Shown: positions 30,993 to 50,857 of the stretch, one piece after another
How positions within the stretch are numbered: position 1 is the first letter of the stretch
How the letters are laid out: each line of letters starts with the position of its first letter
The notes under the pieces: generated by a model
What the model was told of the DNA's origin: nothing
What the model saw: the letters and a program-made list of their open reading frames with translations, nothing else
Databases searched by the model: none
Assembly: GCF_016925675.1 (NCBI RefSeq)
Contig: NZ_CP070507.1
Span: 1-64,000, forward strand
Source of the DNA: Pseudomonas hygromyciniae
GTDB lineage: Bacteria; Pseudomonadota; Gammaproteobacteria; Pseudomonadales; Pseudomonadaceae
Direction of reading: 5' to 3'
DNA length: 64,000 nucleotides
Made by a program: the position numbers and the translations under genes

Positions 30993-31009
30993 CTGGACGC
31001 CAGAAAGAC

Positions 31010-31048
31010 GAAACCCGCAGCACGGCAATGCTTGCGGGTTTCTAGGTT
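31010..31048 (+). terminator. rho-independent terminator
   Basis: GAAACCCGCA and TGCGGGTTTC form the stem, with a 13-base loop and T-rich continuation (TAGGTTTTT). It closes the 28.9-31.0 kb operon. Confidence 0.75.
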
Positions 31049-31126
31049 TTTGCGAAGGAGCAAAAAGCCACGCGCTCATTGTACATCGAGCGCAGGAGAT
31101 TTCACAGCGACACGGAGGAATCAGCG

Positions 31127-36862: not shown

Positions 36863-37314
36863 TGGGCGTGCCCCCATTCGGGGGGCGGCTGTCGTGAACC
36901 AAGCCCCGGCCAAAAGCACGCCGGGTCTTGGCCCTTCGGGCTTCCATCCTCACGCCTCCGGCCTACGGCCTGCGCGCTCCGCTTGCCGGTCGTTCCAGGG
37001 CAACCACTGCGGCTAGCTCAGCAACCATCGGTAGGAAGCGGACGCCCCAATGGCCTATCCGCCACCAGGCCTTGCCTGCAAGGGGCTTTCGCGGCATATC
37101 CTCGCTCGCTACGCTCCCTGCGGTATTCCACGGTCCCCTTGCACGCGGCCTGGCTCTGGATAGTCCGGGCTTACCGCGTCCTACCGAAGGCTGCCGAGCA
37201 GATCCACCCAGCGGTGGTGTGCTTCCATTCCCAAAGAGCAAGGCGGCATCCGCTTCGCGGCTGCTGCTTTGAAAAGCGTTTGTTTCCCGCGCCCCACGCT
37301 CGGCATTAAAGCAG
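36863..37314 (+). repeat. ~450-bp intergenic repeat, copy A
   Basis: Begins with the hairpin GTGCCCCC-attc-GGGGGGC and ends ...CGGCATTAAAGCAG. Copy B at 45.3 kb is nearly identical along the whole length; copy C at 50.46 kb has the first 120 bases. Open frames exist on both strands, but the few differences between copies change amino acids as often as not, so I regard it as noncoding. Confidence 0.8.
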
Positions 37315-38929: not shown

Positions 38930-39058
38930 TAGTATTGACCATAAGTTGACGCAAGGGGGATTTTTTAGGATACTGAATCCGTCGAAGCAATCCCGTCTCG
39001 ACAGCCTGGAACCAGCGGCGGCAACCGCTCCGGGCAACACTGCGAAGGAGTTCGAAGC
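38930..39058 (+). promoter_or_regulatory. repeated promoter plus two-hairpin leader, copy 1
   Basis: -35 TTGACG (38946-38951), 17-bp spacer, -10 GATACT (38969-38974). TTGACCATAAGTTGAC upstream is the degenerate operator. The leader starts six bases after the -10 with GTCGAAGCAATCCCGTCTCGA (hairpin 1, weaker here), then CCTGGAACC...CGCTCCGGG (hairpin 2 around GCGGCAACCGC), then GAAGGAG before the DUF4942 start. Confidence 0.8.
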
Positions 39059-39838
39059 ATGTCTATTTTCAAAGAGTTGGCGTTACCTTCTACGCTTGAC
39101 GATCTGCTAACTGCCCGCGAGGAAGCGCTACGGCTGATCACTGATGCACGCCGCATGCTGGAGCTGGCCCAGGAAGTTCTAGCGCCCCATGGTCGGCATC
39201 TGATGCCTCACGCTGCGCAACTCAGGGAAGACCAGGACAGGGTGCGCCGCGAACTGGACACCTCCCTATGGCGCCGGGCGTTCGATATGACAGGCTTTAA
39301 GCAACTGATGGACGCCGAGGCCGTCGCGGAGTTTGAGAAGAGCCTTTGCCCATCCCCGCCTGAATTCACCGCGTCGACGATCACCGCTACGTTCATCGAC
39401 TTGCGCATAAACGCCGAATCCATGTTCCAGCGTGGGGTTTTCAATGTGTTCCGGTATCTCTCCGACGACTACCGCACCAACGCAAAAGAGCCGTTTCGCA
39501 TCGGCCAGAAAGTGATCATGGAAGGGATGGTCGAACCTTCGTTCAAAAGTGGCCTTTGCATCCGGTACGGTTCATGGGCCAAGGACAAGCTCAATGACCT
39601 TGACCGGGTATTTCAGACGCTCGATGGCAAGCCCTTCCAGGCGCACGCATTGACCTCAGCTATGGATGCAGCTTTTCAGGCTGGGGAAGTGTTCGAGAAC
39701 GAGAACTACCGGGCCAAGGCGTTCAAGAAGGGCACCCTCCACCTGGAGTTTCTGCGCCTGGATCTGCTGGACAAAGTGAATGAGCAGATTGCCGAATATT
39801 ACGCCGGCAACGTGCTGCCAGACGCCCGCGCTGCGTAG
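39059..39838 (+). CDS. DUF4942 family protein
   Basis: 259 residues. The C-terminal FKKGTLHLEFLRLDLLDKVN with EQIAEYYAGN is diagnostic of DUF4942, frequent on Pseudomonas plasmids and prophages. An N-terminal coiled region (REEALRLITDARRMLELAQE) precedes. Function unknown. First gene of the run controlled by the repeated promoter-leader; RBS GAAGGAG. Confidence 0.8.
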   Translation: MSIFKELALPSTLDDLLTAREEALRLITDARRMLELAQEVLAPHGRHLMPHAAQLREDQDRVRRELDTSLWRRAFDMTGFKQLMDAEAVAEFEKSLCPSPPEFTASTITATFIDLRINAESMFQRGVFNVFRYLSDDYRTNAKEPFRIGQKVIMEGMVEPSFKSGLCIRYGSWAKDKLNDLDRVFQTLDGKPFQAHALTSAMDAAFQAGEVFENENYRAKAFKKGTLHLEFLRLDLLDKVNEQIAEYYAGNVLPDARAA

Positions 39839-39850
39839 TAAAAAAATGTC

Positions 39851-39989
39851 ACTATCAGTCAAATTAGATTTGACTGATAGTTGACTTGTTGGGGTTCCTT
39901 TGCGATACTTACCACGTCGAAGCAATTCCGCTTCGACAGCCCGGAACCAGCGGCGGCAACCGCTCCGGGCACACTGCGAAGGAGTTTCC
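39851..39989 (+). promoter_or_regulatory. repeated promoter plus leader, copy 2, with perfect operator palindrome
   Basis: A perfect 31-bp dyad at 39851-39881 (arms ACTATCAGTCAAAT and ATTTGACTGATAGT, centre TAG) runs into -35 TTGACT (39881-39886); spacer 17; -10 GATACT (39904-39909). Hairpin 1 GTCGAAGC-aattcc-GCTTCGAC (39916-39937) begins at the likely start of the transcript, then hairpin 2 (39939-39970) and GAAGGAG. Confidence 0.88.
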
Positions 39990-40358
39990 ATGAGCGCCTA
40001 TATCCTGAATCGTTTTCACATCTCCGCCATCCTCATGTTCACCTGCAACGGCAAGCCGGATGCAACCACCTACCAGCTCCTTGCCGACAAAGGGCAGCAG
40101 CTGCTTGACGAAAACATCCGATCCGTACGCACGCGCTACCCACGCGAAACGTTCAAGGGCGAGCTGTTCGGCCTGGATGAAACTGTCCCCAAGCCCACCC
40201 CGCTCGAAGCCCTCAAGCTCATCCAGTGCCTGGAATATCAGTCCAATCAAAACCCCGACTATTACGCGACCCAGGCATTTCGCACCCTGCATGAAATTCG
40301 CCGCGTAGCGCAGTCAAAGCTGCCGGGCTGGGATCAGGCGAGTTGGGATCTGGTCTGA
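39990..40358 (+). CDS. hypothetical protein
   Basis: 122 residues from ATG 39990 (MSAYILNRFHISAI). Soluble; a helical pattern with KPTPLEALKLIQCLEYQSNQ in the middle. Not recognised. The gene lies directly behind promoter-leader copy 2, and its stop overlaps the next start (TGATG). Confidence 0.65.
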   Translation: MSAYILNRFHISAILMFTCNGKPDATTYQLLADKGQQLLDENIRSVRTRYPRETFKGELFGLDETVPKPTPLEALKLIQCLEYQSNQNPDYYATQAFRTLHEIRRVAQSKLPGWDQASWDLV

Positions 40359-40708
40359 TGGCCGCGAATGCCCAGCAGGTAGCGCCGCCCATGTGGCGCT
40401 ACTCCCTGCGCTGGTGTCTGCCTCACTTGCCATGCCCCGGTGACTTCGAGCTGCTGGTGATCGAGGCGCCGGCAGGGCAGAAGCTCCCCGAGGAAATGCG
40501 CAAAGCGTGGGAGGCCCGGCCCGAGGGTTACGGGGTCTGTCTCGACTTTCCCGCCTCTCAGGCGGTCAAGCGCTGGAGCGCCGAGGCAAAGGGCAAGGTC
40601 AGGCGCAAGAACCTGGAGCGCCGGGTAGAAAAGCAGGCTCCGCTGTTTGCGGATGAGCTGATAGCCCGCGAACTGGCCCAGCGTCCCGCCTATTTCGAAG
40701 GCAAGTAA
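40358..40708 (+). CDS. hypothetical protein
   Basis: 116 residues from ATG 40358 (MAANAQQVAPPMW). Central part WCLPHLPCPGDFELLVIEAP has two cysteines; the C-terminal half is basic (KGKVRRKNLERRVEKQAP), possibly nucleic-acid binding. No family recognised. Translationally coupled to the gene before. Confidence 0.6.
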   Translation: MAANAQQVAPPMWRYSLRWCLPHLPCPGDFELLVIEAPAGQKLPEEMRKAWEARPEGYGVCLDFPASQAVKRWSAEAKGKVRRKNLERRVEKQAPLFADELIARELAQRPAYFEGK

Positions 40709-40722
40709 TCTAAAAAGCCGGT

Positions 40723-40767
40723 ACATGCGGCGGCAACCGCTCCGGCACAGCGAAGGAGAATCCCGCA
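40723..40767 (+). promoter_or_regulatory. leader hairpin 2 alone, copy 3
   Basis: GCCGG...TGCGGCGGCAACCGC TCCGGC followed by AGCGAAGGAG, with no promoter or hairpin 1. The inner stem GCGG/CCGC and loop CGGCAA are kept, the outer stem is shortened. Confidence 0.65.
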
Positions 40768-40986
40768 ATGACTACATACCGTGTTGTATGGGCTGTTGAT
40801 ATCAACGTTGACGGCGATCATCGAGCAGCCGCAGAGGCGTGCGCACGCCACTACTTCCAGCCGCGAATTGCAAACGGCGATCCCGACTGCGCATGCGTGT
40901 TCGAGGTGACAGGACCAGACAACAGGACCGCCGAGGTAGACCTGGTGCCGAGCTTGTGCGATCTCATTGGTGACGACACCGAGTAA
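40768..40986 (+). CDS. hypothetical small protein
   Basis: 72 residues, ferredoxin-like or beta-rich by eye (TTYRVVWAVDINVDGDHRAA), ending in an acidic tail (LCDLIGDDTE). Alternation of VVWAVDI, ACVFEVTG and AEVDLVPS suggests strands. Unknown function; start fixed by hairpin 2 and GAAGGAG. Confidence 0.6.
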   Translation: MTTYRVVWAVDINVDGDHRAAAEACARHYFQPRIANGDPDCACVFEVTGPDNRTAEVDLVPSLCDLIGDDTE

Positions 40987-40998
40987 ACGCAACCCAAC

Positions 40999-41051
40999 AG
41001 TGCCCGGATCCAGCGGCGGCAACCGCTCCGGGCACTTGCGAAGGAGTACGC
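40999..41051 (+). promoter_or_regulatory. leader hairpin 2 alone, copy 4
   Basis: GTGCCCGGA ... TCCGGGCAC is the longest outer stem in the set (9 pairs), enclosing AGCGGCGGCAACCGCT. GAAGGAG follows eight bases later, before the PP-loop gene. Confidence 0.75.
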
Positions 41052-42143
41052 ATGAACGCGATCAGCCGCGGCTGCCCCTCGGGCGGCGCTCACCCCGTTT
41101 TATCCCTCGCCCAGGCCGAGGCCCTGCGCGCTGCGCTGGCCGGTCGGCTGCTGGCTGTGTGTTTCGGATCGGGCGTGGATTCCACGGCCATGCTCGTAGC
41201 CCTGCACGCGGCAGGGCTGCGCCCGGATATCATCACCTTTGCCGACACCGGCGCGGAGAAACCCGAGACGTTGGCCCACATTGAGGCGATGGATTCCGTG
41301 CTGCGTGCGTGGGGCTGGCCGTCCGTTAGCGTGTGCCGGAAGAAACCGAAGCCCACCACCGGATACCAGGATCTGTACGGCAACTGCATGGCCAACGAGA
41401 CATTGCCTAGCCTGGCCTTTGGCATGAAATCTTGTTCGGTGAAGTGGAAGCAGGTTCCCCAGGATCAGTTTCTCATGGGCGCCCGGTCTGGCCCGAACGC
41501 CAGGCCAGCGCATCCTGTGTGGGAACGCGCCAAGGTGACGGGACAACGCATCGTCAAGCTGATCGGTTACGACTGCGGCAAAGCAGATCTGCGCCGCTCC
41601 AAAGCGCTCAAGCCTGCGGACGCAAACTTCGATTATGTCTACCCGTTGCAGCTGGTTCGCTGGACTCGCCGCGATTGTGTGCGTGCGATCACTCAGGCGC
41701 TCGGCGCGGACCTGGTACCGATCAAATCCGCCTGCTTTTTCTGCCCAGCTTCCAAGCACTGGGAACTGTATTGGCTTGCCGCGAATCACCCCGAGCTGCT
41801 GGAGCGGGCGCTGATGCTTGAGCGCAACGCCCTCACTGGCAAGCACAGCCGATTTGACGCAGTACAGTTCGGCGCATCGTGGGAACACCTGGTGCGAAAT
41901 GCCGATGGTTTCCCCAGTACAACGACAACCGTAGGGCTTGGGCGTAGCTTCGCTTGGAACCAGTGGGCCAGGGTCAATGACGTTGTAGACGAGCATTTTA
42001 ATGTCAGGCGAGCCGCTGCCGATCGAGCGCGTTTTGCGGCGTTGTCCGACAGCTTGCGGGATCCAGATAATGCCCTGGACTCGCGTACGCCGGGCATTCC
42101 CGTTGTCGATATCACTAACTCTGAGCAGTTAGAGCTGTGGTAA
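41052..42143 (+). CDS. PP-loop ATPase of the PAPS-reductase family
   Basis: 363 residues. P-loop-like pyrophosphate motif VCFGSGVDSTAMLVAL near residues 35-50 and PDIITFADTGAEKPE are those of PAPS reductase/DndC-type N-type ATP pyrophosphatases. Cysteines in GNCMANETLP, KSCSVKWK and SACFFCPASKH may bind an Fe-S cluster or thiolate. Relatives on phages and plasmids are annotated as PAPS reductase but are unlikely to reduce sulfate here. With a DNA methyltransferase two genes on, a nucleic-acid modification role is possible; this is inference. Confidence 0.8.
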   Translation: MNAISRGCPSGGAHPVLSLAQAEALRAALAGRLLAVCFGSGVDSTAMLVALHAAGLRPDIITFADTGAEKPETLAHIEAMDSVLRAWGWPSVSVCRKKPKPTTGYQDLYGNCMANETLPSLAFGMKSCSVKWKQVPQDQFLMGARSGPNARPAHPVWERAKVTGQRIVKLIGYDCGKADLRRSKALKPADANFDYVYPLQLVRWTRRDCVRAITQALGADLVPIKSACFFCPASKHWELYWLAANHPELLERALMLERNALTGKHSRFDAVQFGASWEHLVRNADGFPSTTTTVGLGRSFAWNQWARVNDVVDEHFNVRRAAADRARFAALSDSLRDPDNALDSRTPGIPVVDITNSEQLELW

Positions 42144-42149
42144 ATTATT

Positions 42150-42286
42150 AGTAAAAAATAGATTTGACTATAAGTTGACATTGATAATAGCCTTTGCGAT
42201 ACTGGGAACCGTCGAAGCAATCCTGCTTCGACAGCCTGGAACCAGCGGCGGCAACCGCTCCGGGCACTTGCGAAGGAGTTACAAAC
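42150..42286 (+). promoter_or_regulatory. repeated promoter plus leader, copy 5
   Basis: TTGACTATAAGTTGACA operator/-35 (TTGACA 42175-42180), spacer 17, -10 GATACT (42198-42203). Hairpin 1 GTCGAAGC-aatcct-GCTTCGAC, hairpin 2 CCTGGAACC...TCCGGG with one G-U pair, GAAGGAG. Confidence 0.85.
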
Positions 42287-42529
42287 ATGGCTATCGAAAC
42301 CCACCTGTTCTATTTCAGCTCAGCCACGCAGCTGCGCGATTTCTCCGGCTTCACCGTCGAGCCGTCCCATCAAGCCCGCCCAGGGCAAGAACCCTCCACC
42401 GTCACCATGTACACGGTCGTCGCTCAGCGCTCCGGCATCGGCCAGCGCGAAGTCATCGCAGAGTTCCCGCTGGAACTGCATGCCGAGATTTTCCGCGACA
42501 TGGCCGAGGCGACAGCCCGCGCCCTCTGA
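42287..42529 (+). CDS. hypothetical small protein
   Basis: 80 residues from ATG 42287 (MAIETHLFYFSSATQL). Soluble, no recognised motif. It is followed by a GC hairpin (CCCGGACC-ttg-GGTCCGGG at 42541-42559) that may attenuate transcription into the methyltransferase gene. Confidence 0.6.
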   Translation: MAIETHLFYFSSATQLRDFSGFTVEPSHQARPGQEPSTVTMYTVVAQRSGIGQREVIAEFPLELHAEIFRDMAEATARAL

Positions 42530-42571
42530 CCACAGCCCCGCCCGGACCTTGGGTCCGGGCCATCGTGACGG

Positions 42572-44263
42572 ATGACGAACATGCTTACAAAGTATGTGCT
42601 CAAGCACTTTCATTTCTGCTGCGGGCTTGGCGGCGGCGCCAAAGGCTTCAATCAAAACAAGGAAGTGGTCGGCCACCTGCAGGCGGAATGGCGCTGCATT
42701 GGCGGTGTCGATGTGGACGCCGGCGCGCTGCGTGATTTCCAACGCCTGGCCGGTGTACCAGGTACGCAAATGGACCTGTTCACCCGCGAGCAATACACCG
42801 CCTTCCATGGCAAGGAACCGCCAGCAGACTGGCGGGAGGCAACCCCGGCTGATATTCGCCGCGCTGCGGGCTTTCAGGATCCTGATGTGGTGTTCATCAG
42901 CAGCCCCTGCAAAGGCGCTTCTGGCCTGTTGTCCGAGGCGTTGAGCCTAACCCCCAAGTACCAGGCCCTCAATGAACTGACGCTGCGCTGCGTGTGGCTC
43001 ATGTGCGAGGCCTGGCAGCACAACCCGCCCGGCCTGATCGTGTTCGAGAACGTGCCGCGCCTGGCAACCCGTGGTCGCCACCTGCTCGATCAGATCGTTC
43101 AGGTGTTGAACTTCTTTGGCTATGCCGTGAGCGAGACAACCCACGACTGCGGGGAGCTGGGCGGCCTGGCCCAAAGCCGCAAGCGCTTTCTGCTGGTGGC
43201 TCGGCACGTGGAGAAAGTGCCACCGTTCTTGTACGAGCCGGAAAAGAAATCCCTGCAATCGGTCGGTGCTGTCCTTGGCCGCATGCCGCTGCCTGGCGAT
43301 ATCGAGCGCGCAGGCCCAATGCATCGGGTTCCAGCGCTGCAATGGAAAACGTGGGTTCGCCTTGCCCTGGTCGAGGCCGGCAAGGACTGGCGCAGCCTGG
43401 ATCAGTTGGCCATCGAGGACGGTTATCTGCGCGACTTCGTGATAGTGCCCGAGGCGTTCTCGGGATATCTAGGCGTGCGTAGCTGGGGTGATTCAATGGG
43501 CACCGTTGCCGGCCAGACAGGGCCAACCAATGGCGCATTTTCGGTTGCAGATCCGCGCAGCCCGGCACACGCCGCGCAGTACCAGCAATATGGCGTACGG
43601 CGCTGGGAGGACTCGAGCGGCGCAATCATCGGCATCAAGTCGCCAGGGCAGGGCACGTTCAGCGTGGCCGATCCGCGTGGCGCAGCTGGTGGACACGGGA
43701 AATACAGCGTCACCCGCTGGGATGGCTCGGCACGCACCGTCATTGCCGGCAGCACGACAGGGCAGGGCGCGTTTGCCGTACAGGATCCGCGCCCAGGCTT
43801 GCGCCGCGTGAAAGGCGATGCCTACCTCACCGGGGGCCACTATGGCGTCGTGCCGTGGGAAGGCCTGGCCGGGGCAGTATCCGCCAGTGCGCGCCTGGAC
43901 AATGGCCGCTGGAGCGTTGCCGATCCGCGCATGCCAGCCGCCAATGATCGATTGACCTGCGTGATTCGAAGCCTCGACGGCACCTGGCACCGCCCATTCA
44001 CCACGCTGGAAATGGCGGCGCTGCAAAGCCTGGTTGACCCGGAAGAAATGCTTGAGCTGGACGGTTTGAGCGACCAGGCGTGGCGCGAGCGGATCGGTAA
44101 TGCGGTACCACCGAAAGCCGCTGAGGCAATTGCCGGTGTAATGGCCCAAACCCTCCTGCTGGCCAAGCAGGGTGAAACCTTCCTGCTCAGTCATATGCCG
44201 GTATGGGTTCGCCCCGTCGCGGTCGGCCTGTCGCTGGCCAGCGAACTCGACAAGGCAGCATAA
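42572..44263 (+). CDS. C5-cytosine DNA methyltransferase with internal tandem repeats
   Basis: 563 residues. Motif I HFHFCCGLGGGAKGF (12-26), motif IV SPCKG with catalytic C113, motif VI ENV (159-161), motif VIII QSRKR (201-205), motif X GNAVPPKAAEAI (509-520). Between VIII and X, where the target recognition domain lies, there are four units of about 31 residues ending F/WSVADPR-like: 299-329, 339-369, 378-407 and 423-453. It should methylate cytosine; no restriction partner is adjacent, so it is probably an orphan or anti-restriction enzyme. M4 is an alternative start. Confidence 0.92.
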   Translation: MTNMLTKYVLKHFHFCCGLGGGAKGFNQNKEVVGHLQAEWRCIGGVDVDAGALRDFQRLAGVPGTQMDLFTREQYTAFHGKEPPADWREATPADIRRAAGFQDPDVVFISSPCKGASGLLSEALSLTPKYQALNELTLRCVWLMCEAWQHNPPGLIVFENVPRLATRGRHLLDQIVQVLNFFGYAVSETTHDCGELGGLAQSRKRFLLVARHVEKVPPFLYEPEKKSLQSVGAVLGRMPLPGDIERAGPMHRVPALQWKTWVRLALVEAGKDWRSLDQLAIEDGYLRDFVIVPEAFSGYLGVRSWGDSMGTVAGQTGPTNGAFSVADPRSPAHAAQYQQYGVRRWEDSSGAIIGIKSPGQGTFSVADPRGAAGGHGKYSVTRWDGSARTVIAGSTTGQGAFAVQDPRPGLRRVKGDAYLTGGHYGVVPWEGLAGAVSASARLDNGRWSVADPRMPAANDRLTCVIRSLDGTWHRPFTTLEMAALQSLVDPEEMLELDGLSDQAWRERIGNAVPPKAAEAIAGVMAQTLLLAKQGETFLLSHMPVWVRPVAVGLSLASELDKAA

Positions 44264-44299
44264 CCAACCTAAAGGCGCCTCAGCCCGGGGCGCCTAACT

Positions 44300-44355
44300 C
44301 AGCCCGGAAATGACGGCGGCAACCGTCCCGGGAACCCACGCGAAGGAGTAACACC
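44300..44355 (+). promoter_or_regulatory. leader hairpin 2 alone, copy 6
   Basis: CCCGGAAATGACGGCGGCAA then CCGTCCCGGG, then GCGAAGGAG. The inner stem is ACGG/CCGT instead of GCGG/CCGC, a compensated change that supports an RNA fold. A short hairpin AGGCGCC/GGCGCCT at 44273-44297 precedes and may end the methyltransferase transcript. Confidence 0.75.
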
Positions 44356-44577
44356 ATGTTCCGCGATCTCACGATGAGCAAAGCCCAACGTTCCAGCCAG
44401 GCCCTGCATACCGCTGCGCGGTTGGCAGAGCATCGGAAGAAGTGGTATTCAGCCGCCGAGCTTTACGAAGCAGCCGCATCCCTTTGGCCTGGCAAAGGCC
44501 TCAGTTTGATGCGCCGCGCCGAACAGTGCCGCTCCCTGGTTGTCGATGCCAGCGATGAAATGGAATTTGAGGATTGA
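44356..44577 (+). CDS. hypothetical small helical protein
   Basis: 73 residues. The central run HTAARLAEHRKKWYSAAELY and EAAASLWPGKGLSLMRRAEQ looks like a TPR-type helical pair. It starts after hairpin 2 copy 6 and ends three bases before the next gene. Function unknown. Confidence 0.65.
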   Translation: MFRDLTMSKAQRSSQALHTAARLAEHRKKWYSAAELYEAAASLWPGKGLSLMRRAEQCRSLVVDASDEMEFED

Positions 44578-44580
44578 GCC

Positions 44581-45021
44581 ATGGACGAACGAACGGAACA
44601 GCAACTGACCGATTATCTCGATACCCTGTTGTGGCTGGAGACCGCCTCCGTGGCCGAGATTGAAGGAGCCTTATCCACGGCCTCCGCCACTGTACGTGAG
44701 GACCTGGAGCTGGGCATTCAGTGCATGATGGACTCAGACCGTCCCGGCTTGGCCAACTACTTTCCCAACCTGGTCAGTCGGCCCACTTCGCTGTCAGTCA
44801 TCCGCCAAAAATTCTCAGCTGTCGCACTGGCTATGGATCAGCTTGAGGACTCGATGCGCCGGCGACAAACGGATCCTACCTATCCGTTAATGGGTTATGG
44901 CGCGGTTCTCGGTACGTTGGCCAAGTTGCAATACCTGAACAAAATCACACCGTCGCAGCGGGAGTTGCTGCTCAGCGAACTGGCTAGCCTCAAAGCTGGC
45001 GGCTTGCGTCTGGACAATTAA
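44581..45021 (+). CDS. hypothetical protein
   Basis: 146 residues, helical, acidic N-terminal half (DERTEQQLTDYLDTLLWLET). Not recognised. Its stop is nine bases before the next small gene, whose AAGGAGG lies in between, so 44356, 44581 and 45031 form one operon. Confidence 0.6.
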   Translation: MDERTEQQLTDYLDTLLWLETASVAEIEGALSTASATVREDLELGIQCMMDSDRPGLANYFPNLVSRPTSLSVIRQKFSAVALAMDQLEDSMRRRQTDPTYPLMGYGAVLGTLAKLQYLNKITPSQRELLLSELASLKAGGLRLDN

Positions 45022-45030
45022 GGAGGCGTC

Positions 45031-45288
45031 ATGAATCGCATGGCTAAACGCCGGAGTCGGTTACCCGTGATCCTCTGCGTAGCTGGGGGCATTCTCATTT
45101 TCGTGGTTGAAATGTTTTCGTCCTGGCACATGACCGAACGGCGCGTAGCGCGAAAGAACCAGGAGAAGGCTCGGTATCTGCAGGAGCATTCGCCGCCAAA
45201 ACCAGCCAATACGCACGTAGAGGTATTCATGCCGCCAGGGGCTTCGCACAATACCTCACACACCATCAAGGAAGCGGTTTCGCCTTGA
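45031..45288 (+). CDS. small signal-anchor protein
   Basis: 85 residues: basic start (MNRMAKRRSRLP), one hydrophobic helix (VILCVAGGILIFVVEMF) and a hydrophilic proline-rich tail. Probably a bitopic inner-membrane protein with the tail outside. Unrecognised. Confidence 0.6.
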   Translation: MNRMAKRRSRLPVILCVAGGILIFVVEMFSSWHMTERRVARKNQEKARYLQEHSPPKPANTHVEVFMPPGASHNTSHTIKEAVSP

Positions 45289-45295
45289 GTCATCA

Positions 45296-45744
45296 TGGGC
45301 GTGCCCCTGCGGGGGCGGCTGTCGTGAACCAAGCCCCGGCCAAAAGCACGCCGGGTCTTGGCCCTTCGGGCTTCCATCCTCACGCCTCCGGCCTACGGCC
45401 TGCGCGCTCCGCTTGCCAGTCGTTCCAGGGCAACCACTGCGGCTAGCTCAGCAACCATCGGTAGGAAGCGGACGCCCCAATGGCCTATCCGCCACCAGGC
45501 CTTGCCTGCAAGGGGCTTTCGCGGCATATCCTCGCTCGCTACGCTCCCTGCGGTATTCCACGGTCCCCTTGCACGCGGCCTGGCTCTGGATAGTCCGGGC
45601 TTACCGCGTCCTACCGAAGGCTGCCGAGCAGATCCACCCAGCAGTGGCGCGCTTCCATTCCCAAAGAGCAAGGCGGCATCCGCTTCGCGGCTGCAGCTTT
45701 GAAAAGCGTTTGTTTCCCGCGCCCCACGCTCGGCATTAAAGCAG
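45296..45744 (+). repeat. ~450-bp intergenic repeat, copy B
   Basis: Nearly identical to 36863-37314, in the same orientation. The first hairpin loop is shorter (GTGCCCC-tgc-GGGGGC). Only a handful of substitutions separate the copies, 8.4 kb apart. Confidence 0.85.
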
Positions 45745-45786
45745 CTCGGTAAAGCGGTCAAGCGTTCGGATCAAGAAAAAGCAGAT

Positions 45787-45802
45787 TTCTCGCGTGCGAG
45801 AA
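45787..45802. promoter_or_regulatory. TTCTCGC-N2-GCGAGAA palindrome, copy 3
   Basis: TTCTCGCGTGCGAGAA, the same arms with GT in place of AC at the centre. It lies 36 bases upstream of the -35 of promoter copy 7, as copy 2 lies 36 bases upstream of that of copy 1. Confidence 0.65.
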
Positions 45803-45814
45803 ACGCGACAAGCG

Positions 45815-45948
45815 GTCAATATGGATTTGACCAATAGTTGACTTTAGTTAGGCGTTGGGCGATACTACTCATGTCGAAGCAATTCCGCTTCGACGGTCTG
45901 GAACCAGCGGCGGCAACCGCTCCAGGCAAATCGCGAAGGAGTTTACGC
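45815..45948 (+). promoter_or_regulatory. repeated promoter plus leader, copy 7
   Basis: Operator half ATTTGACCAATAGTTGAC, -35 TTGACT (45838-45843), spacer 17, -10 GATACT (45861-45866). Hairpin 1 perfect; hairpin 2 outer stem is CTGGA/TCCAG, a compensated change relative to CCGGA/TCCGG. GAAGGAG before the ATG. Confidence 0.88.
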
Positions 45949-46347
45949 ATGACTATCACCGCTCAAGCCCCCGCCCTCAGCTTCAACAACTGGCTCACCC
46001 CAGCCGACTTTTTGAGCTTTGCCCAAAAGATCTGGGCGCCTGCCGTTGATTCGAGCATCGAGGCGATGGAGCGCAAAGTTGACGATCTCTACGGCGCGGC
46101 ATGTAAGCGCTTCCCCACCTATGACACCATGGTGCACAACGCTTTCTGTGCGAGCATGGATGAGGAGTTCGGCACCGATGAACAAGCCGAGGGAGTGGCG
46201 GAAGTGTTCGCGTACGCCCGCGAGGCTTATGGCTATATGTCTGCCAGTGAGAACGAAGCACAGCGCCAGGAAGACGCCGATAACGGCTTCTGCTGGCACG
46301 GCCTGGACGTTATGACCTGCCCTTGCGGTTGCTTCGAGAACGACTAA
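45949..46347 (+). CDS. hypothetical protein with C-terminal cysteine motif
   Basis: 132 residues from ATG 45949 (MTITAQAPALSFNNW). Helical body, and a C-terminal GLDVMTCPCGCFEND with three cysteines in five residues, possibly a metal site. Not recognised. It shares a run with ssb 24 bases downstream. Confidence 0.65.
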   Translation: MTITAQAPALSFNNWLTPADFLSFAQKIWAPAVDSSIEAMERKVDDLYGAACKRFPTYDTMVHNAFCASMDEEFGTDEQAEGVAEVFAYAREAYGYMSASENEAQRQEDADNGFCWHGLDVMTCPCGCFEND

Positions 46348-46371
46348 TTCAGACGGAGAAGGAGATTCATC

Positions 46372-46908
46372 ATGGCCCGTGGCGTAAACAAAGTAATCCT
46401 GGTCGGTACTTGCGGGCAGGATCCCGAAGTCCGCTACCTTCCCAATGGCAACGCCGTGACCAACCTCAGCTTGGCCACCAGCGAGCAATGGACCGATAAG
46501 CAGAGTGGCCAGAAGGTCGAGCGCACCGAGTGGCACCGTGTGTCGCTGTTCGGCAAGGTGGCCGAGATCGCCGGCGAATACCTGCGCAAAGGTTCGCAGT
46601 GCTACATCGAAGGCAAGCTGCAAACCCGCGAATGGGAGAAGGACGGAATCAAGCGTTACACCACTGAAATCATCGTCGATATGCAAGGAACGATGCAGCT
46701 GCTCGGCGGTCGCCCGCAGAACCAGCAGCCGGGCAGTGACCCCTACAACCAGGGCGGCAGTAACCAGGCCCCCCGCCAGCAAGCCCCGCGTCAGCAGCCA
46801 CCGCAGCGCCCGGCACAGCCGGCGCCGCAGCCAGCGGCAGACTTTGACAGCTTCGATGACGACATACCGTTCATGGATCCGTACCGCTTCAATTGGCACC
46901 TCCAATAA
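46372..46908 (+). CDS. ssb: single-stranded DNA-binding protein
   Basis: 178 residues. OB-fold with [53 protein letters not shown] and [12 protein letters not shown] Gln/Pro-rich linker follows. The acidic DDDIPF tip that binds partner proteins is present but is not terminal: it is followed by [11 protein letters not shown]. It covers ssDNA in replication, repair and transfer; plasmid-coded SSBs often serve conjugation. Confidence 0.96.
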
Positions 46909-46916
46909 TCATGAAG

Positions 46917-46965
46917 AGGGCGGGCGCCTAAGCCTGGCATGCGCTGGGCTTAGGCTCCGCCCGAT
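46917..46965 (+). terminator. long hairpin after ssb
   Basis: GGGCGGGCGCCTAAGCC pairs with GGCTTAGGCTCCGCCC around a short loop. The T-tail is poor, so termination may be partial and may leave transcription into the next small gene. Confidence 0.55.
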
Positions 46966-46996
46966 GGAAGCTGTAGGAACTTAGAGGAGAGAAATT

Positions 46997-47224
46997 GTGC
47001 GCCTGATCGCCTTTGTTCACGCGCTGGTTTTACTGGCAGTTATGTTTATGGTCGGTCGCTCCGATTTTGCGCAACATTCCGGTTATATAGGGGTAGTCGG
47101 GGCAATCATCGGAATGGTGATATCAGGCCGTAGCCAAACCCAATTGGGCAAAGCGATTGCGCTATGGCTAATCGTCACAGGTGTCGCGGCAACGACAGGT
47201 TGGCAATTTCACCTAATGGCCTAG
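46997..47224 (+). CDS. small membrane protein
   Basis: 75 residues starting with GTG or at this position with GAGGAGAG upstream. Helices LIAFVHALVLLAVMFMVG, YIGVVGAIIGMVIS and IALWLIVTGVAATTG. Unrecognised; ends 29 bases before a terminator. Confidence 0.55.
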   Translation: MRLIAFVHALVLLAVMFMVGRSDFAQHSGYIGVVGAIIGMVISGRSQTQLGKAIALWLIVTGVAATTGWQFHLMA

Positions 47225-47252
47225 TTCCGTTCCCCCCACTGTCAACGAAGAA

Positions 47253-47276
47253 GCCCCGGCACTAGCCGGGTTTTAA
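47253..47276 (+). terminator. rho-independent terminator
   Basis: CCCGGC-acta-GCCGGG followed by TTTT. It separates the ssb run from the next repeated promoter. Confidence 0.7.
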
Positions 47277-47284
47277 AACGACAG

Positions 47285-47422
47285 ACGGTCAAATTAGATT
47301 TGACCAATAGTTGACTTCAGTTTGTGCCTTTGCGATACTAACCCCGTCGAAGCAATCCCGCCTCGACAGCCTGGAACCAGCGGCGGCAACCGCTCCAGGC
47401 AAATCGCGAAGGAGATTCAAAA
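47285..47422 (+). promoter_or_regulatory. repeated promoter plus leader, copy 8
   Basis: GGTCAAATTAGATTTGACC operator core, -35 TTGACT (47311-47316), spacer 17, -10 GATACT (47334-47339). Hairpin 1 GTCGAAGC-aatccc-GCCTCGAC with one mismatch, hairpin 2 outer stem CTGGA/TCCAG. GAAGGAG before the DUF932 start. Confidence 0.88.
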
Positions 47423-48250
47423 ATGCGTCTATCCAGCAACTTCCGTAACCCTTGCATGGTCCGCAGCGACAGCCCGCTGAGTAATGACGAGATCGCACGT
47501 GTTGCCCCCTCGATCTTTGCCGAGGAAGCACATGAAAGCCGCTCCGATCGCTACCGCTACATTCCCACCGTTGACGTACTGGAAGCGCTGCGCAGTGAAG
47601 GGTTTATGCCGTTCATGGCGTGCCAAACCCGCGTGCGTAACACCGACAAGCGCGAACACACCAAGCACATGATCCGCCTGCGTCACGCCAACACCATCGT
47701 TGCCAAAGAGGCCAACGAAATCATCCTGCTGAACAGCCACGATGGCACGAGCAGCTACCAGATGATGGGCGGTTGCTTCCGTTTCGTGTGCGCCAATGGC
47801 CTGGTACTGGGTGACGCCGCGATGGATCAGAAAGTCCGCCACAGCGGGCGTCAGGATGTTATCGGGGATGTGATCGAGGGCGCATATGAAGTCCTGAATC
47901 AGTTCCAGCTGATCGAGGAACAGCGCGAAACCATGAAGGGTATCCAGCTGGGCGGCGACCTGCAGCACGCCTTTGCCGAGGCTGCACTTGCCTACCGCTA
48001 CGACCCGGCAGACGGCCCGGCTCCGGTGACCGCTAGCCAGCTTCTGGCACCACGGCGCCGCGAAGACGCCACCAACGACCTCTGGTCGACCTTCAACCGC
48101 GTACAGGAAAACACCATCAAGGGAGGGCTGCGAGGCCGCAACAAACAAGGGCGCCGTACCAGCACCCGTGCCGTTTCCGGCATTGACCAGGACGTGAAAT
48201 TGAATCGCGCCCTGTGGGTACTGGCCCAGCACCTGCGCCAAGCCGCCTAA
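47423..48250 (+). CDS. DUF932 family protein
   Basis: 275 residues. DVLEALRSEGFMPFMACQTRV, RLRHANTIVAKEANEIILLN and FRFVCANGLVLGD are the DUF932 signature, a common protein of plasmids, phages and integrative elements. A link to phage/plasmid early functions is known, a precise activity is not. Product of promoter-leader copy 8. Confidence 0.9.
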   Translation: MRLSSNFRNPCMVRSDSPLSNDEIARVAPSIFAEEAHESRSDRYRYIPTVDVLEALRSEGFMPFMACQTRVRNTDKREHTKHMIRLRHANTIVAKEANEIILLNSHDGTSSYQMMGGCFRFVCANGLVLGDAAMDQKVRHSGRQDVIGDVIEGAYEVLNQFQLIEEQRETMKGIQLGGDLQHAFAEAALAYRYDPADGPAPVTASQLLAPRRREDATNDLWSTFNRVQENTIKGGLRGRNKQGRRTSTRAVSGIDQDVKLNRALWVLAQHLRQAA

Positions 48251-48754: not shown

Positions 48755-49066
48755 ATGCAGCCGATGTACACCAAAGAAGAATGGAAGAAGGTTGCGCCCC
48801 TGTTTGCTTCCAAGCGCCTGGCCATCTCGACTGTCGAGGTGGCCAAGGCCGTTCTGGTCGATGGCCAGCGCATCACCGACGTAGCCGAGGCCAGAGGGAT
48901 GACCAAGCAGACCGCCCACGCAGCGGTTAAGCGCGTGCGGAAAATCCTTGAAGAACAGGGCGCCGGCGAACTGGTACCCGTTCTTGTGTGGCTGCCCCCC
49001 GAGCTGGCCGAGCAGGTACGGGAAATGGCCAAGCCATTCCCGCAGCCTGCTGCCCCGAAAAAGTAG
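48755..49066 (+). CDS. TrfB/KorA-related DNA-binding protein
   Basis: 103 residues. The core LAISTVEVAKAVLVDGQRIT and DVAEARGMTKQTAHAAVKRV is the TrfB/KorA HTH region. KorA proteins repress plasmid backbone promoters in a coordinated way. It is the best in-window candidate for the regulator of the repeated operators or the TTCTCGC palindromes, but this is inference from location. Confidence 0.8.
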   Translation: MQPMYTKEEWKKVAPLFASKRLAISTVEVAKAVLVDGQRITDVAEARGMTKQTAHAAVKRVRKILEEQGAGELVPVLVWLPPELAEQVREMAKPFPQPAAPKK

Positions 49067-50460: not shown

Positions 50461-50583
50461 TGCGTGCCCCCTTCGGGGGGCGGCTGTCGTGAACCAAGCC
50501 CCGGCCAAAAGCACGCCGGGTCTTGGCCCTTCGGGCTTCCATCCTCACGCCTCCGGCCTTCGGCCTGCGCGCTCCGCTTGCCG
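50461..50583 (+). repeat. ~450-bp intergenic repeat, truncated copy C
   Basis: First 120 bases of the repeat (hairpin GTGCCCCC-ttcg-GGGGGC through CGCGCTCCGCTTGCC). The rest is missing, replaced by unrelated sequence, apparently by the arrival of other DNA. Confidence 0.85.
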
Positions 50584-50857
50584 TTTGTATCGTACGGCCG
50601 AGGGGGCAATTCCTAACCCGGCCTCGCGGCCGGGATGGCCCATCCCACCTGGTAATCAAGATCGAGGGCGAGCCGGCCAGCAGGCCGGGCGCTGCAGCAG
50701 CTCGCGTGGGAGCAAGTGCACGGCTCGGGAAATCGCCCTGCAGTTGCCCACCGCCCAGGCGATGATGCACACCTGGTCCGTGGACAACTGCACCGCTCGC
50801 TCTGGCCCTTGTTGGGGCCTCGCTCGCTGGACGATTTTGCGTGCGCGAGCTGCTGCA
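50584..50857 (+). other. short decayed segment before island 2
   Basis: No intact gene. One plus-strand frame (AREIALQLPTAQAMMHTWSV) looks like a scrap of a protein cut by the inverted repeat that follows, but I cannot name it. Confidence 0.3.

What the first reader, a model, noticed from the sequence alone, without database searches (positions are those of the whole stretch)
38930..47422. A family of eight repeated 5' leaders, candidate cis-acting RNA, before accessory genes
Eight genes between 39.0 and 47.4 kb are preceded by the same leader module. Five copies (38981, 39916, 42211, 45873, 47346) have hairpin 1 (GTCGAAGC-N6-GCTTCGAC) starting six or seven bases after the -10, then hairpin 2 (CCGGA...AGCGGCGGCAACCGCT...TCCGG), then GAAGGAG. 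Three more (40723, 40999, 44300) have only hairpin 2 plus GAAGGAG inside operons. Pairing changes are compensated: CCGGA/TCCGG becomes CTGGA/TCCAG in copies 7 and 8, GCGG/CCGC becomes ACGG/CCGT in copy 6. The constant loop GGCGGCAAC next to the ribosome site points to a shared binding partner (a protein, an sRNA or the ribosome) that sets translation of the whole set. I know no named RNA motif for it.
Basis: partly seen in the sequence, partly recalled or inferred. Interest (0 to 1): 0.85.

Follow-up and report, generated by a model that had tools for sequence, protein, structure and literature searches.

The report
Shared RNA leaders of plasmid establishment genes
Eight genes on a conjugative plasmid, probably switched on as it enters a new cell, share a small folded RNA start with one loop that hardly ever changes; other plasmid groups of Pseudomonas and gut bacteria carry the same design, whose controlling protein is of a known kind but for whose RNA part I found no description.

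Summary
The eight leaders are real and are the only copies found in this genome. They precede what is probably the leading-region ("establishment") regulon of an IncP-9-like plasmid. Related regulons are known: CUP elements of IncN plasmids and ArdK-controlled genes of R388. An ArdK/TrfB-family gene lies just downstream. The leader also occurs in IncN-typed, IncW and other conjugative plasmids: 166 matches in 48 of 49 searched sequences, 140 distinct with the signature loop.

Two parts behave differently. Hairpin 1 (8 bp, 6-nt loop) goes with promoters (76 of 98 copies with a promoter, 14 of 42 without, by a strict criterion) and starts about where the mRNA should start. Hairpin 2 (varying stem, near-invariant CGGCAA loop) precedes Shine-Dalgarno and start codon in 135 of 140, also in tight intercistronic gaps. 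This points to an RNA-level, per-cistron role. Tree-aware tests support both stems as wholes, but no single pair is significant, and wobble counts do not separate RNA from DNA.

Best reading: a repressor-controlled entry burst whose mRNAs carry a 5'-end hairpin and a per-gene translation or stability hairpin. Predicted Shine-Dalgarno accessibility is unchanged, so simple unmasking is not supported. Rfam has no match.

The parts
38934..38974 (+). copy 1: TTGAC direct repeat / promoter (-35 TTGACG 38946-38951, -10 GATACT 38969-38974)
   Evidence: sequence, family D7
38981..39002 (+). copy 1: hairpin 1 (7 of 8 pairs)
39004..39050 (+). copy 1: hairpin 2 (39004-39035, loop CGGCAA 39019-39024) and Shine-Dalgarno GCGAAGGAG 39042-39050, before the DUF4942 gene 39059-39838
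39868..39909 (+). copy 2: TTGAC direct repeat / promoter (-35 39881-39886, -10 39904-39909)
39916..39937 (+). copy 2: hairpin 1 (8 of 8)
39939..39984 (+). copy 2: hairpin 2 (39939-39970) and Shine-Dalgarno 39976-39984, before ORF 39990
40717..40758 (+). copy 3: hairpin 2 only (40717-40746) and Shine-Dalgarno, 8 nt after the upstream stop, before ORF 40768
41000..41046 (+). copy 4: hairpin 2 only (41000-41035) and Shine-Dalgarno, 16 nt after the upstream stop, before ORF 41052
42162..42203 (+). copy 5: TTGAC direct repeat / promoter (-35 42175-42180, -10 42198-42203)
42211..42232 (+). copy 5: hairpin 1 (8 of 8)
42234..42278 (+). copy 5: hairpin 2 (42234-42265) and Shine-Dalgarno, before ORF 42287 and the C5 DNA methylase gene 42572-44263
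44303..44348 (+). copy 6: hairpin 2 only, inner stem ACGG/CCGT, and Shine-Dalgarno, about 40 nt after the methylase stop, before ORF 44356
45825..45866 (+). copy 7: TTGAC direct repeat / promoter (-35 45838-45843, -10 45861-45866)
45873..45894 (+). copy 7: hairpin 1 (8 of 8)
45896..45941 (+). copy 7: hairpin 2 (outer stem GTCTGGA/TCCAGGC) and Shine-Dalgarno, before ORF 45949 and the ssb-like gene 46372-46908
47298..47339 (+). copy 8: TTGAC direct repeat / promoter (-35 47311-47316, -10 47334-47339)
47346..47367 (+). copy 8: hairpin 1 (7 of 8)
47369..47414 (+). copy 8: hairpin 2 and Shine-Dalgarno, before the DUF932 gene 47423-48250
48755..49066 (+). TrfB/KorA-family DNA-binding protein, likely the ArdK-type repressor of the set
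   Evidence: 34% identity over 93 aligned positions to ArdK of R46, 44% over 71 to the IncW protein, PDB KORA-domain chains E 1.6e-10

Best explanation
These are the leaders of the establishment (leading-region) regulon of an IncP-9-like conjugative plasmid. Five transcription units start at a sigma-70-type promoter whose -35 lies in a TTGAC direct repeat. That repeat is the probable operator of the ArdK/KorA-type protein encoded just downstream, so the genes should be expressed in a burst when the plasmid enters a cell without the repressor and then be shut down (inferred from R388 and IncN). The transcript should begin at hairpin 1, which would seal the mRNA 5' end. Hairpin 2, with its near-constant CGGCAA loop, sits just upstream of the Shine-Dalgarno of individual cistrons, including cistrons inside operons. 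It most likely acts on the mRNA, raising translation and/or stability of each cistron during the burst, probably through recognition of the loop by a host factor or the ribosome. Shown here: anatomy, spread, structure conservation at whole-stem level, and the link of hairpin 1 to promoters and of hairpin 2 to Shine-Dalgarno sites. Inferred: the repressor, the burst, the transcript start, the RNA-level action and its direction, and the partner.
For: A counterpart is described in print: CUP/ArdK in IncN (passages read), and in R388 ArdK repressing PardC, Porf7, Porf12, Porf14 and Pssb (passages read). Two IncW plasmids carry hairpin 2; in pMAK3 it precedes a zincin-like metallopeptidase (ArdC type), a DUF3560 gene, ssb and further genes. 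An ArdK-family gene lies next to the set, and a TrfB-related or KorA gene is annotated in 21 of the 22 fetched plasmid stretches that hold a match, pPC9 being the exception (read by eye). Hairpin 1: a hairpin with at most one unpaired position directly upstream of hairpin 2 in 76 of 98 copies with a promoter and 14 of 42 without; by a looser criterion 96 of 98, starting 6-8 nt after the -10 in 88 of the 96. Of the 42 copies without a detected promoter, an upstream ORF was determined for 36, and 34 of those end within 51 nt. A Shine-Dalgarno-like site and the start of an ORF of at least 40 codons (or open to the end of the sequence) follow in 135 of 140 copies, against 208 of 2800 random positions. 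Promoters found by an operator pattern without using hairpin 2: 60 of 68 have CGGCAA within 65 nt, at 43-46 nt after the -10 in 55 of the 60; 2 are hairpin-1-only copies, 1 has loop CAGCAA, 5 look like chance matches. Swapped-arm control for hairpin 2 with equal freedom: 5.69 vs 4.56 of 6 pairs, all six in 75% vs 23%. Tree-aware whole-stem tests: hairpin 1 main family 0.918 paired vs null 0.641 (0 of 1000 nulls); hairpin 2 outer stem 0.801 vs 0.504 (1 of 500).
Against: No single base pair is significant in the R-scape-like test (0 of 8 and 0 of 11). RNAalifold on the MAFFT alignment chose a shifted register with a CAA triloop and no double change. G-U and A-C cells are equally common in hairpin 1 (23 vs 23 in the main family, 5 vs 6 in the other) and close in hairpin 2 (14 vs 9), so wobble does not favour RNA over single-stranded DNA. 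Shine-Dalgarno accessibility is predicted no better than with shuffled leaders (0.448 vs 0.428, p = 0.10), which argues against simple unmasking. In one search the number of stem-breaking events was not lower than in the null for the hairpin 2 outer stem, nor for hairpin 1 when misanchored rows are kept. The hairpin 1 swap contrast (6.84 vs 2.82 of 8) is inflated because native arms were chosen for best pairing. R46, the plasmid in which CUP was described, has no match to the hairpin-2 model. The transcription start, repressor binding and oriT position in this plasmid are not shown.
Confidence: 0.6

Rival explanations
1. The hairpins act in the entering single strand, as a single-stranded promoter or priming site like Frpo/ssi of F.
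For: In related plasmids the genes are transcribed toward the stb/relaxase side, so the transferred strand would be the template (oriT position taken from published relatives, not mapped here). The stems can form on either strand, and wobble counts do not decide.
Against: In single-strand folding of the five promoter copies, both strands, the -10 is weakly paired (mean pairing 0.19-0.53) and the -35 variably (0.22-0.78). The 479-nt region upstream of ssb of F folds mostly into one very long hairpin (by eye; its -35 and -10 were not located, so this is a loose yardstick). Hairpin 2 recurs in promoterless intercistronic gaps next to Shine-Dalgarno sites.
Confidence: 0.12
2. Hairpin 1, or both hairpins, are DNA operators, i.e. 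palindromic protein sites just downstream of the promoter.
For: Hairpin 1 is a 22-bp palindrome at the probable start site; its 5' arm is nearly constant in the Pseudomonas plasmids while the 3' arm drifts, including A-C mismatches.
Against: A constant half-site with a drifting partner is odd for a dimer site. Hairpin 2 has no detected promoter near it in 42 of 140 copies and is asymmetric, with a bulge on one side only.
Confidence: 0.13
3. The leader is a nascent-RNA antiterminator that modifies RNA polymerase, comparable to the two-hairpin put RNA of phage HK022 (comparison from memory).
For: Two hairpins 0-1 nt apart at the start of the transcript, and terminator-like hairpins before some promoterless copies (by eye).
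Against: Does not explain the placement of hairpin 2 before each cistron's Shine-Dalgarno or the copies with hairpin 2 alone.
Confidence: 0.08
4. The repeats are merely recent cassette duplications kept by recombination, with no function of hairpin 2.
For: Copies within one plasmid are nearly identical in the core, and recombination between CUP repeats has been proposed in IncN2 plasmids (passages read).
Against: The same loop, layout and spacing persist across plasmid groups while stems and genes differ; whole-stem pairing exceeds tree-aware nulls.
Confidence: 0.07

Closest known systems
CUP (conserved upstream repeat) elements of IncN plasmids pKM101/R46 and IncN2, controlled by ArdK
   Same: Repeated upstream elements with promoter and putative ArdK site before operons of the leading region, arranged in one orientation (passage read); an ArdK-family repressor; R46 leaders also place an 8-bp hairpin with a GC-AATACC-GC signature after the promoter.
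   Different: R46 has no hairpin-2 match; its hairpin 1 lies farther from the -10 (by eye) and inside another stem; here some copies have hairpin 2 and no promoter. Whether the 1997 CUP paper described leader hairpins could not be read.
ArdK-repressed establishment promoters of IncW plasmid R388
   Same: ArdK represses the ardC, orf7, orf12, orf14 and ssb promoters, and the title names transcriptional overshooting (passages read); two other IncW plasmids carry six hairpin-2 matches each in the comparable region.
   Different: By eye most IncW leaders lack a clear hairpin 1 and use GCAGGAG with a longer spacing; the R388 paper's text has no occurrence of hairpin, stem-loop, leader or untranslated. 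R388 itself was not examined.
Frpo/ssi single-stranded promoters of F-type leading regions
   Same: Leading-region genes including ssb, DUF932 and methylases.
   Different: -35 and -10 are not held in one single-strand hairpin here.
5'-terminal stabilising stem-loops such as that of ompA (recalled, no call)
   Same: Hairpin 1 starts at the probable 5' end.
   Different: No half-life data; hairpin 2 with a near-fixed loop has no counterpart that I know.

Membership tests
CUP elements of IncN leading regions | Repeated element upstream of several genes of the leading region in one orientation | tested here: met
   Eight copies, all + strand, before the set 39.0-48.2 kb; relatives alike. That this is the leading region is inferred from relatives.
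CUP elements of IncN leading regions | Each element carries a sigma-70 promoter | tested here: inconclusive
   Met in 5 of 8 window copies; 3 of 8 have none.
CUP elements of IncN leading regions | ArdK-type repressor encoded by the plasmid and bound at the element | tested here: inconclusive
   Homologous gene at 48755-49066; binding not testable here.
CUP elements of IncN leading regions | Sequence or structure homology to R46 CUP | tested here: inconclusive
   Hairpin 1 signature shared; hairpin 2 not found in R46.
Frpo/ssi single-stranded promoter | -35 and -10 base-paired within the folded single strand | tested here: not met
   mean pairing of the -10 at most 0.53 on either strand in the five copies.
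Any Rfam family | Match to a covariance model | tested here: not met
   0 matches at gathering over the window and 0 at E up to 1 over 9176 bases around three of the copies.
Intrinsic terminator/attenuator | Hairpin followed by a run of T | tested here: not met
   By eye no T-run after hairpin 2 in the eight window copies; one relative (L009 12711, same in L011) has TTTTT there.

The most novel reading that the evidence does not exclude
Hairpin 2 is an undescribed class of cis-regulatory RNA: a CGGCAA-loop element placed before individual cistrons of plasmid establishment genes and recognised by a factor conserved across Gammaproteobacteria, so that the whole set is translated together right after plasmid entry.
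Probability: 0.35. Interest if true: 0.8.

Novelty: new variant of a known kind. Interest (0 to 1): 0.6.

Why it matters
Leading-region genes help incoming plasmids, including resistance and catabolic plasmids, to survive restriction and establish, and the control that I found described is at the promoter level. A shared RNA element before individual cistrons of this set, spread over IncP-9, IncN-typed, IncW and other plasmids, would add an RNA layer to plasmid establishment. It also gives a sequence signature for finding establishment genes of unknown function, and a concrete test: what recognises the CGGCAA loop?

Tried and rejected
Single-pair covariation (R-scape-like tree null): nothing significant, so I report only whole-stem tests. 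In one search, with substitutions re-dealt over all columns, same-branch compensated changes exceeded the null for the hairpin 1 main family (7 vs 0.90, 0 of 1000) and the hairpin 2 outer stem (6 vs 1.07, 0 of 500), but not for all 69 hairpin 1 rows (4 vs 1.53, p = 0.061) or the inner stem (2 vs 0.89, p = 0.22). With stem substitutions kept within stem columns the four values were 7 vs 1.48 (0 of 1000), 6 vs 2.08 (p = 0.014), 4 vs 1.78 (p = 0.091) and 2 vs 0.49 (p = 0.060).

Wobble asymmetry to separate RNA from DNA: no discrimination. Shine-Dalgarno unmasking by hairpin 2: not supported over 132 of 140 copies. Frpo reading: disfavoured on folding.

RNAalifold's register with a CAA triloop was set aside because rare stem variants keep the hexaloop register and break the other: GGGG/CCCC in L174 and GCGA/TCGC in L226, and GAGG/CCTC in L177. 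That comparison is by eye; ACGG/CCGT does not decide, since it fits both by a G-U pair. One L174 copy (17897) has CCGG/CCGC, which breaks one pair.

CsrA/RsmA binding through GGA (from memory): the first GGA is missing in the P. fragi type. A pairing of the -10 region with the Shine-Dalgarno region seen in some DNA folds is not shared by all copies, and the -10 should not be transcribed. Genome scans with over 40 genomes use stricter filters that lose weak matches. Rows dropped: 22 of 166 matches as duplicates, 4 of 144 for lack of CGGCAA (one a real leader with loop CAGCAA, three other hairpins); in the family-A hairpin 1 tests, 8 of 69 rows (misanchored or other family). The first count of Shine-Dalgarno and start codons (138 and 137 of 140) used a lax rule and was replaced.

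Full report
Observation. Five consist of a TTGAC direct repeat overlapping the -35, a 17-nt spacer, GATACT, hairpin 1, hairpin 2 and GCGAAGGAG. Three have hairpin 2 and GCGAAGGAG only. They are the only eight matches of the covariance model in this two-contig genome, and the close sequence matches are confined to the window. The window is G000:C2:1-64000; that C2 is a plasmid is inferred from its similarity to IncP-9 plasmids (pWW0, NAH7 and relatives; that these are IncP-9 is recalled).

What the genes are. The set comprises a DUF4942 gene, a C5 DNA methylase gene, a DUF932 gene, small genes without a Pfam match (7 of 10 proteins scanned had none) and an ssb-like gene (annotated so in relatives). 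Next to it lies a TrfB/KorA-family protein with 34% identity to ArdK of R46 and PDB hits to KORA-domain proteins and to TrfB. In relatives the same block is followed by stb genes and then the relaxase genes, i.e. the leading-region side. oriT was not mapped here and stb genes were not looked for in the window. The IncN block is the published CUP-controlled regulon: CUP elements carry a promoter and a putative ArdK site, and ArdK represses (passages read in PMC6289460, and PMC5371602). The founding paper (Delver and Belogurov 1997) is known to me only from those citations and from memory (not held). In R388, ArdK represses the ardC, orf7, orf12, orf14 and ssb promoters, and the title names transcriptional overshooting (passages of PMC3937220).

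Spread. Blast with one leader matched 179 PLSDB records, mainly Pseudomonas and Enterobacteriaceae; with an IncN-typed leader 201. A covariance model (R1, 45 sequences, 59 positions, 11 pairs) found matches in 9 of 298 Pseudomonas genomes, the window's own included; 8 of the 9 have four or more copies. In 398 genomes of the phylum and 369 of the class it matched only the window's own genome (stricter filters), so false positives are rare. Over 49 held sources, 780,511 bases, it gave 166 matches at E up to 0.1 in 48 of the sources; 144 are distinct and 140 of these have the CGGCAA loop. R46 gave none.

Division of labour. 98 of the 140 have a detectable promoter. A hairpin with at most one unpaired position lies directly upstream of hairpin 2 in 76 of these 98 and in 14 of the other 42; of those 14, by eye, three are hairpin 1 with a degenerate or missed promoter and the rest look like terminator-type hairpins. 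By a looser criterion (at least n-3 Watson-Crick pairs, best of several registers) 96 of 98 have hairpin 1, starting 6-8 nt after the -10 in 88; a few of these look like chance. Its stem differs between groups: GTCGAAGC/GCTTCGAC in IncP-9, CGGTTAGC/GCTGACCG and CGGTCGGC/GCCGACCG in IncN-typed plasmids, CGGTTGGC/GCCAACCG in Enterobacter, CAGTTAGC/GTTAACTG in Rouxiella, and a 9-bp version with a 5-nt loop in the P. fragi type. R46 CUPs carry a related hairpin, CGGGTGGC/GCCGCCCG in one. The 42 copies without a detected promoter sit in tight intercistronic gaps: an upstream ORF was determined for 36, and 34 of these stop within 51 nt; by the same rule only 11 of the 98 promoter copies have such an ORF, 3 of them within 51 nt. 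A Shine-Dalgarno-like site and the start of an ORF of at least 40 codons (or open to the end) follow hairpin 2 in 135 of 140 (132 ATG, 3 GTG), against 208 of 2800 random positions of the same sequences. So hairpin 1 belongs to transcription starts and hairpin 2 to cistrons.

Loop. Because the model was seeded with CGGCAA sequences, I looked for operator-bearing promoters without using hairpin 2 (the pattern was written after seeing the leaders and misses many): 68 found in 33 loci. Of these, 60 have CGGCAA within 65 nt of the -10, 55 of the 60 at 43-46 nt; 2 are copies of a hairpin-1-only leader, 1 has CAGCAA, and 5 look like chance matches. Rare inner-stem variants (GGGG/CCCC, GCGA/TCGC, ACGG/CCGT; GAGG/CCTC) keep the loop.

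Structure tests. The tool's shuffles favour the hairpin 2 stems (the alignment behind one search is fitted to the model and leans its way). Swapped arms pair less well: hairpin 2, equal freedom, 5.69 native vs 4.56 swapped of 6; hairpin 1, 6.84 vs 2.82 of 8, inflated because native arms were chosen for pairing. A tree-aware null built from FastTree and Fitch reconstruction, re-dealing substitutions over columns, gives: hairpin 1 main family (61 rows, anchored on sequence) 0.918 cells paired vs 0.641, 0 of 1000; all 69 rows 0.851 vs 0.387, 0 of 1000; hairpin 2 outer stem at fixed bulge (114 rows) 0.801 vs 0.504, 1 of 500; inner stem 0.998 vs 0.636, 0 of 500. With stem substitutions kept in stem columns the nulls are 0.726, 0.444, 0.572 and 0.980, reached by 0 of 1000, 0 of 1000, 0 of 500 and 1 of 500. 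But no single pair reached E < 0.05 (0 of 8, 0 of 11), and RNAalifold on the sequence alignment chose another register with no double change. Breaking events were fewer than in the first null for the hairpin 1 main family (18 vs 27.1) and the inner stem (1 vs 29.3), not for all hairpin 1 rows (41 vs 32.3) or the outer stem (41 vs 36.4). The trees come from very short sequences, so these nulls are rough.

Function. The link to Shine-Dalgarno sites, the orientation and the promoterless copies point to the mRNA. Against a simple mechanism, predicted Shine-Dalgarno accessibility equals that of shuffled leaders (0.448 vs 0.428, 73 of 132 higher, p = 0.10). Wobble counts (G-U 23 vs A-C 23 in hairpin 1 main types, 5 vs 6 in the other type; 14 vs 9 in hairpin 2) do not separate RNA from single-stranded DNA. 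Single-strand promoter folding of the Frpo kind is not seen. I therefore favour loop-specific recognition, with protection of the 5' end by hairpin 1, and leave the partner open. The protein type that I saw in nearly every annotated neighbourhood is the TrfB/ArdK/KorA family (21 of 22 stretches with a match); as this is a DNA-binding repressor family, a host factor or the ribosome seems the likelier partner of the loop (inference).

Novelty. Rfam has no match. Searches for a description of such a leader RNA and the passages that I read of CUP, ArdK and leading-region papers showed none; most subscription papers, including the original CUP paper, were not available. The regulon is a known kind; the two-hairpin leader with one near-fixed loop looks like a new variant of it.

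Noticed in passing
window 30995-31060: A longer hairpin with the same CGGCAA loop (stem AGCA/TGCT within GAAACCCGC...GCGGGTTTC) followed by TGCGAAGGAG, near the start of the ORF at 31079 (the DUF1173 position in pWW0); also in pWW0 and NAH7. It has a T-run and no start codon right after GCGAAGGAG, so it may be a terminator or a ninth member.
   Followed up: partly
window 36881-37180 and 45311-45610, third partial copy near 50467-50588: A 300-nt direct repeat, reported 100% identical between the first two copies, flanking gene modules; possibly a recombination site for module exchange.
   Followed up: no
L131 457-525, L167 3426-3484, L146 161-229: IMG/VR contigs with a CGGCAA-loop hairpin followed by TGCGAAGGAG: weak matches to the model for L131 and L167 (E 0.033 and 0.016) and a stronger one for L146 (E 9.4e-6); possible phage or plasmid relatives.
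   Followed up: no
L009 12542 and L011 22316: IncN-typed leader with promoter and hairpin 1 directly followed by the Shine-Dalgarno, no hairpin 2; the next gene has a bare inner hairpin 2. A natural experiment for the separate roles of the two hairpins.
   Followed up: partly
L181 (R46) CUP leaders: One R46 leader folds with an outer CCGATA/TATCGG stem enclosing hairpin 1, a different solution for a structured 5' end.
   Followed up: partly
window, operator of copy 2, just upstream of the -35 at 39881: Copy 2 carries a long near-perfect inverted repeat around the operator (CTATCAGTCAAATTAGATTTGACTGATAG) that is weaker or absent at copies 1 and 5.
   Followed up: no
L083 (NZ_JAHHIU010000151.1): A contig titled Streptomyces sp. 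IBSBF 2953 holds 5 matches, 4 of them copies of this Pseudomonas-type leader; probably contamination or a mislabelled contig.
   Followed up: no
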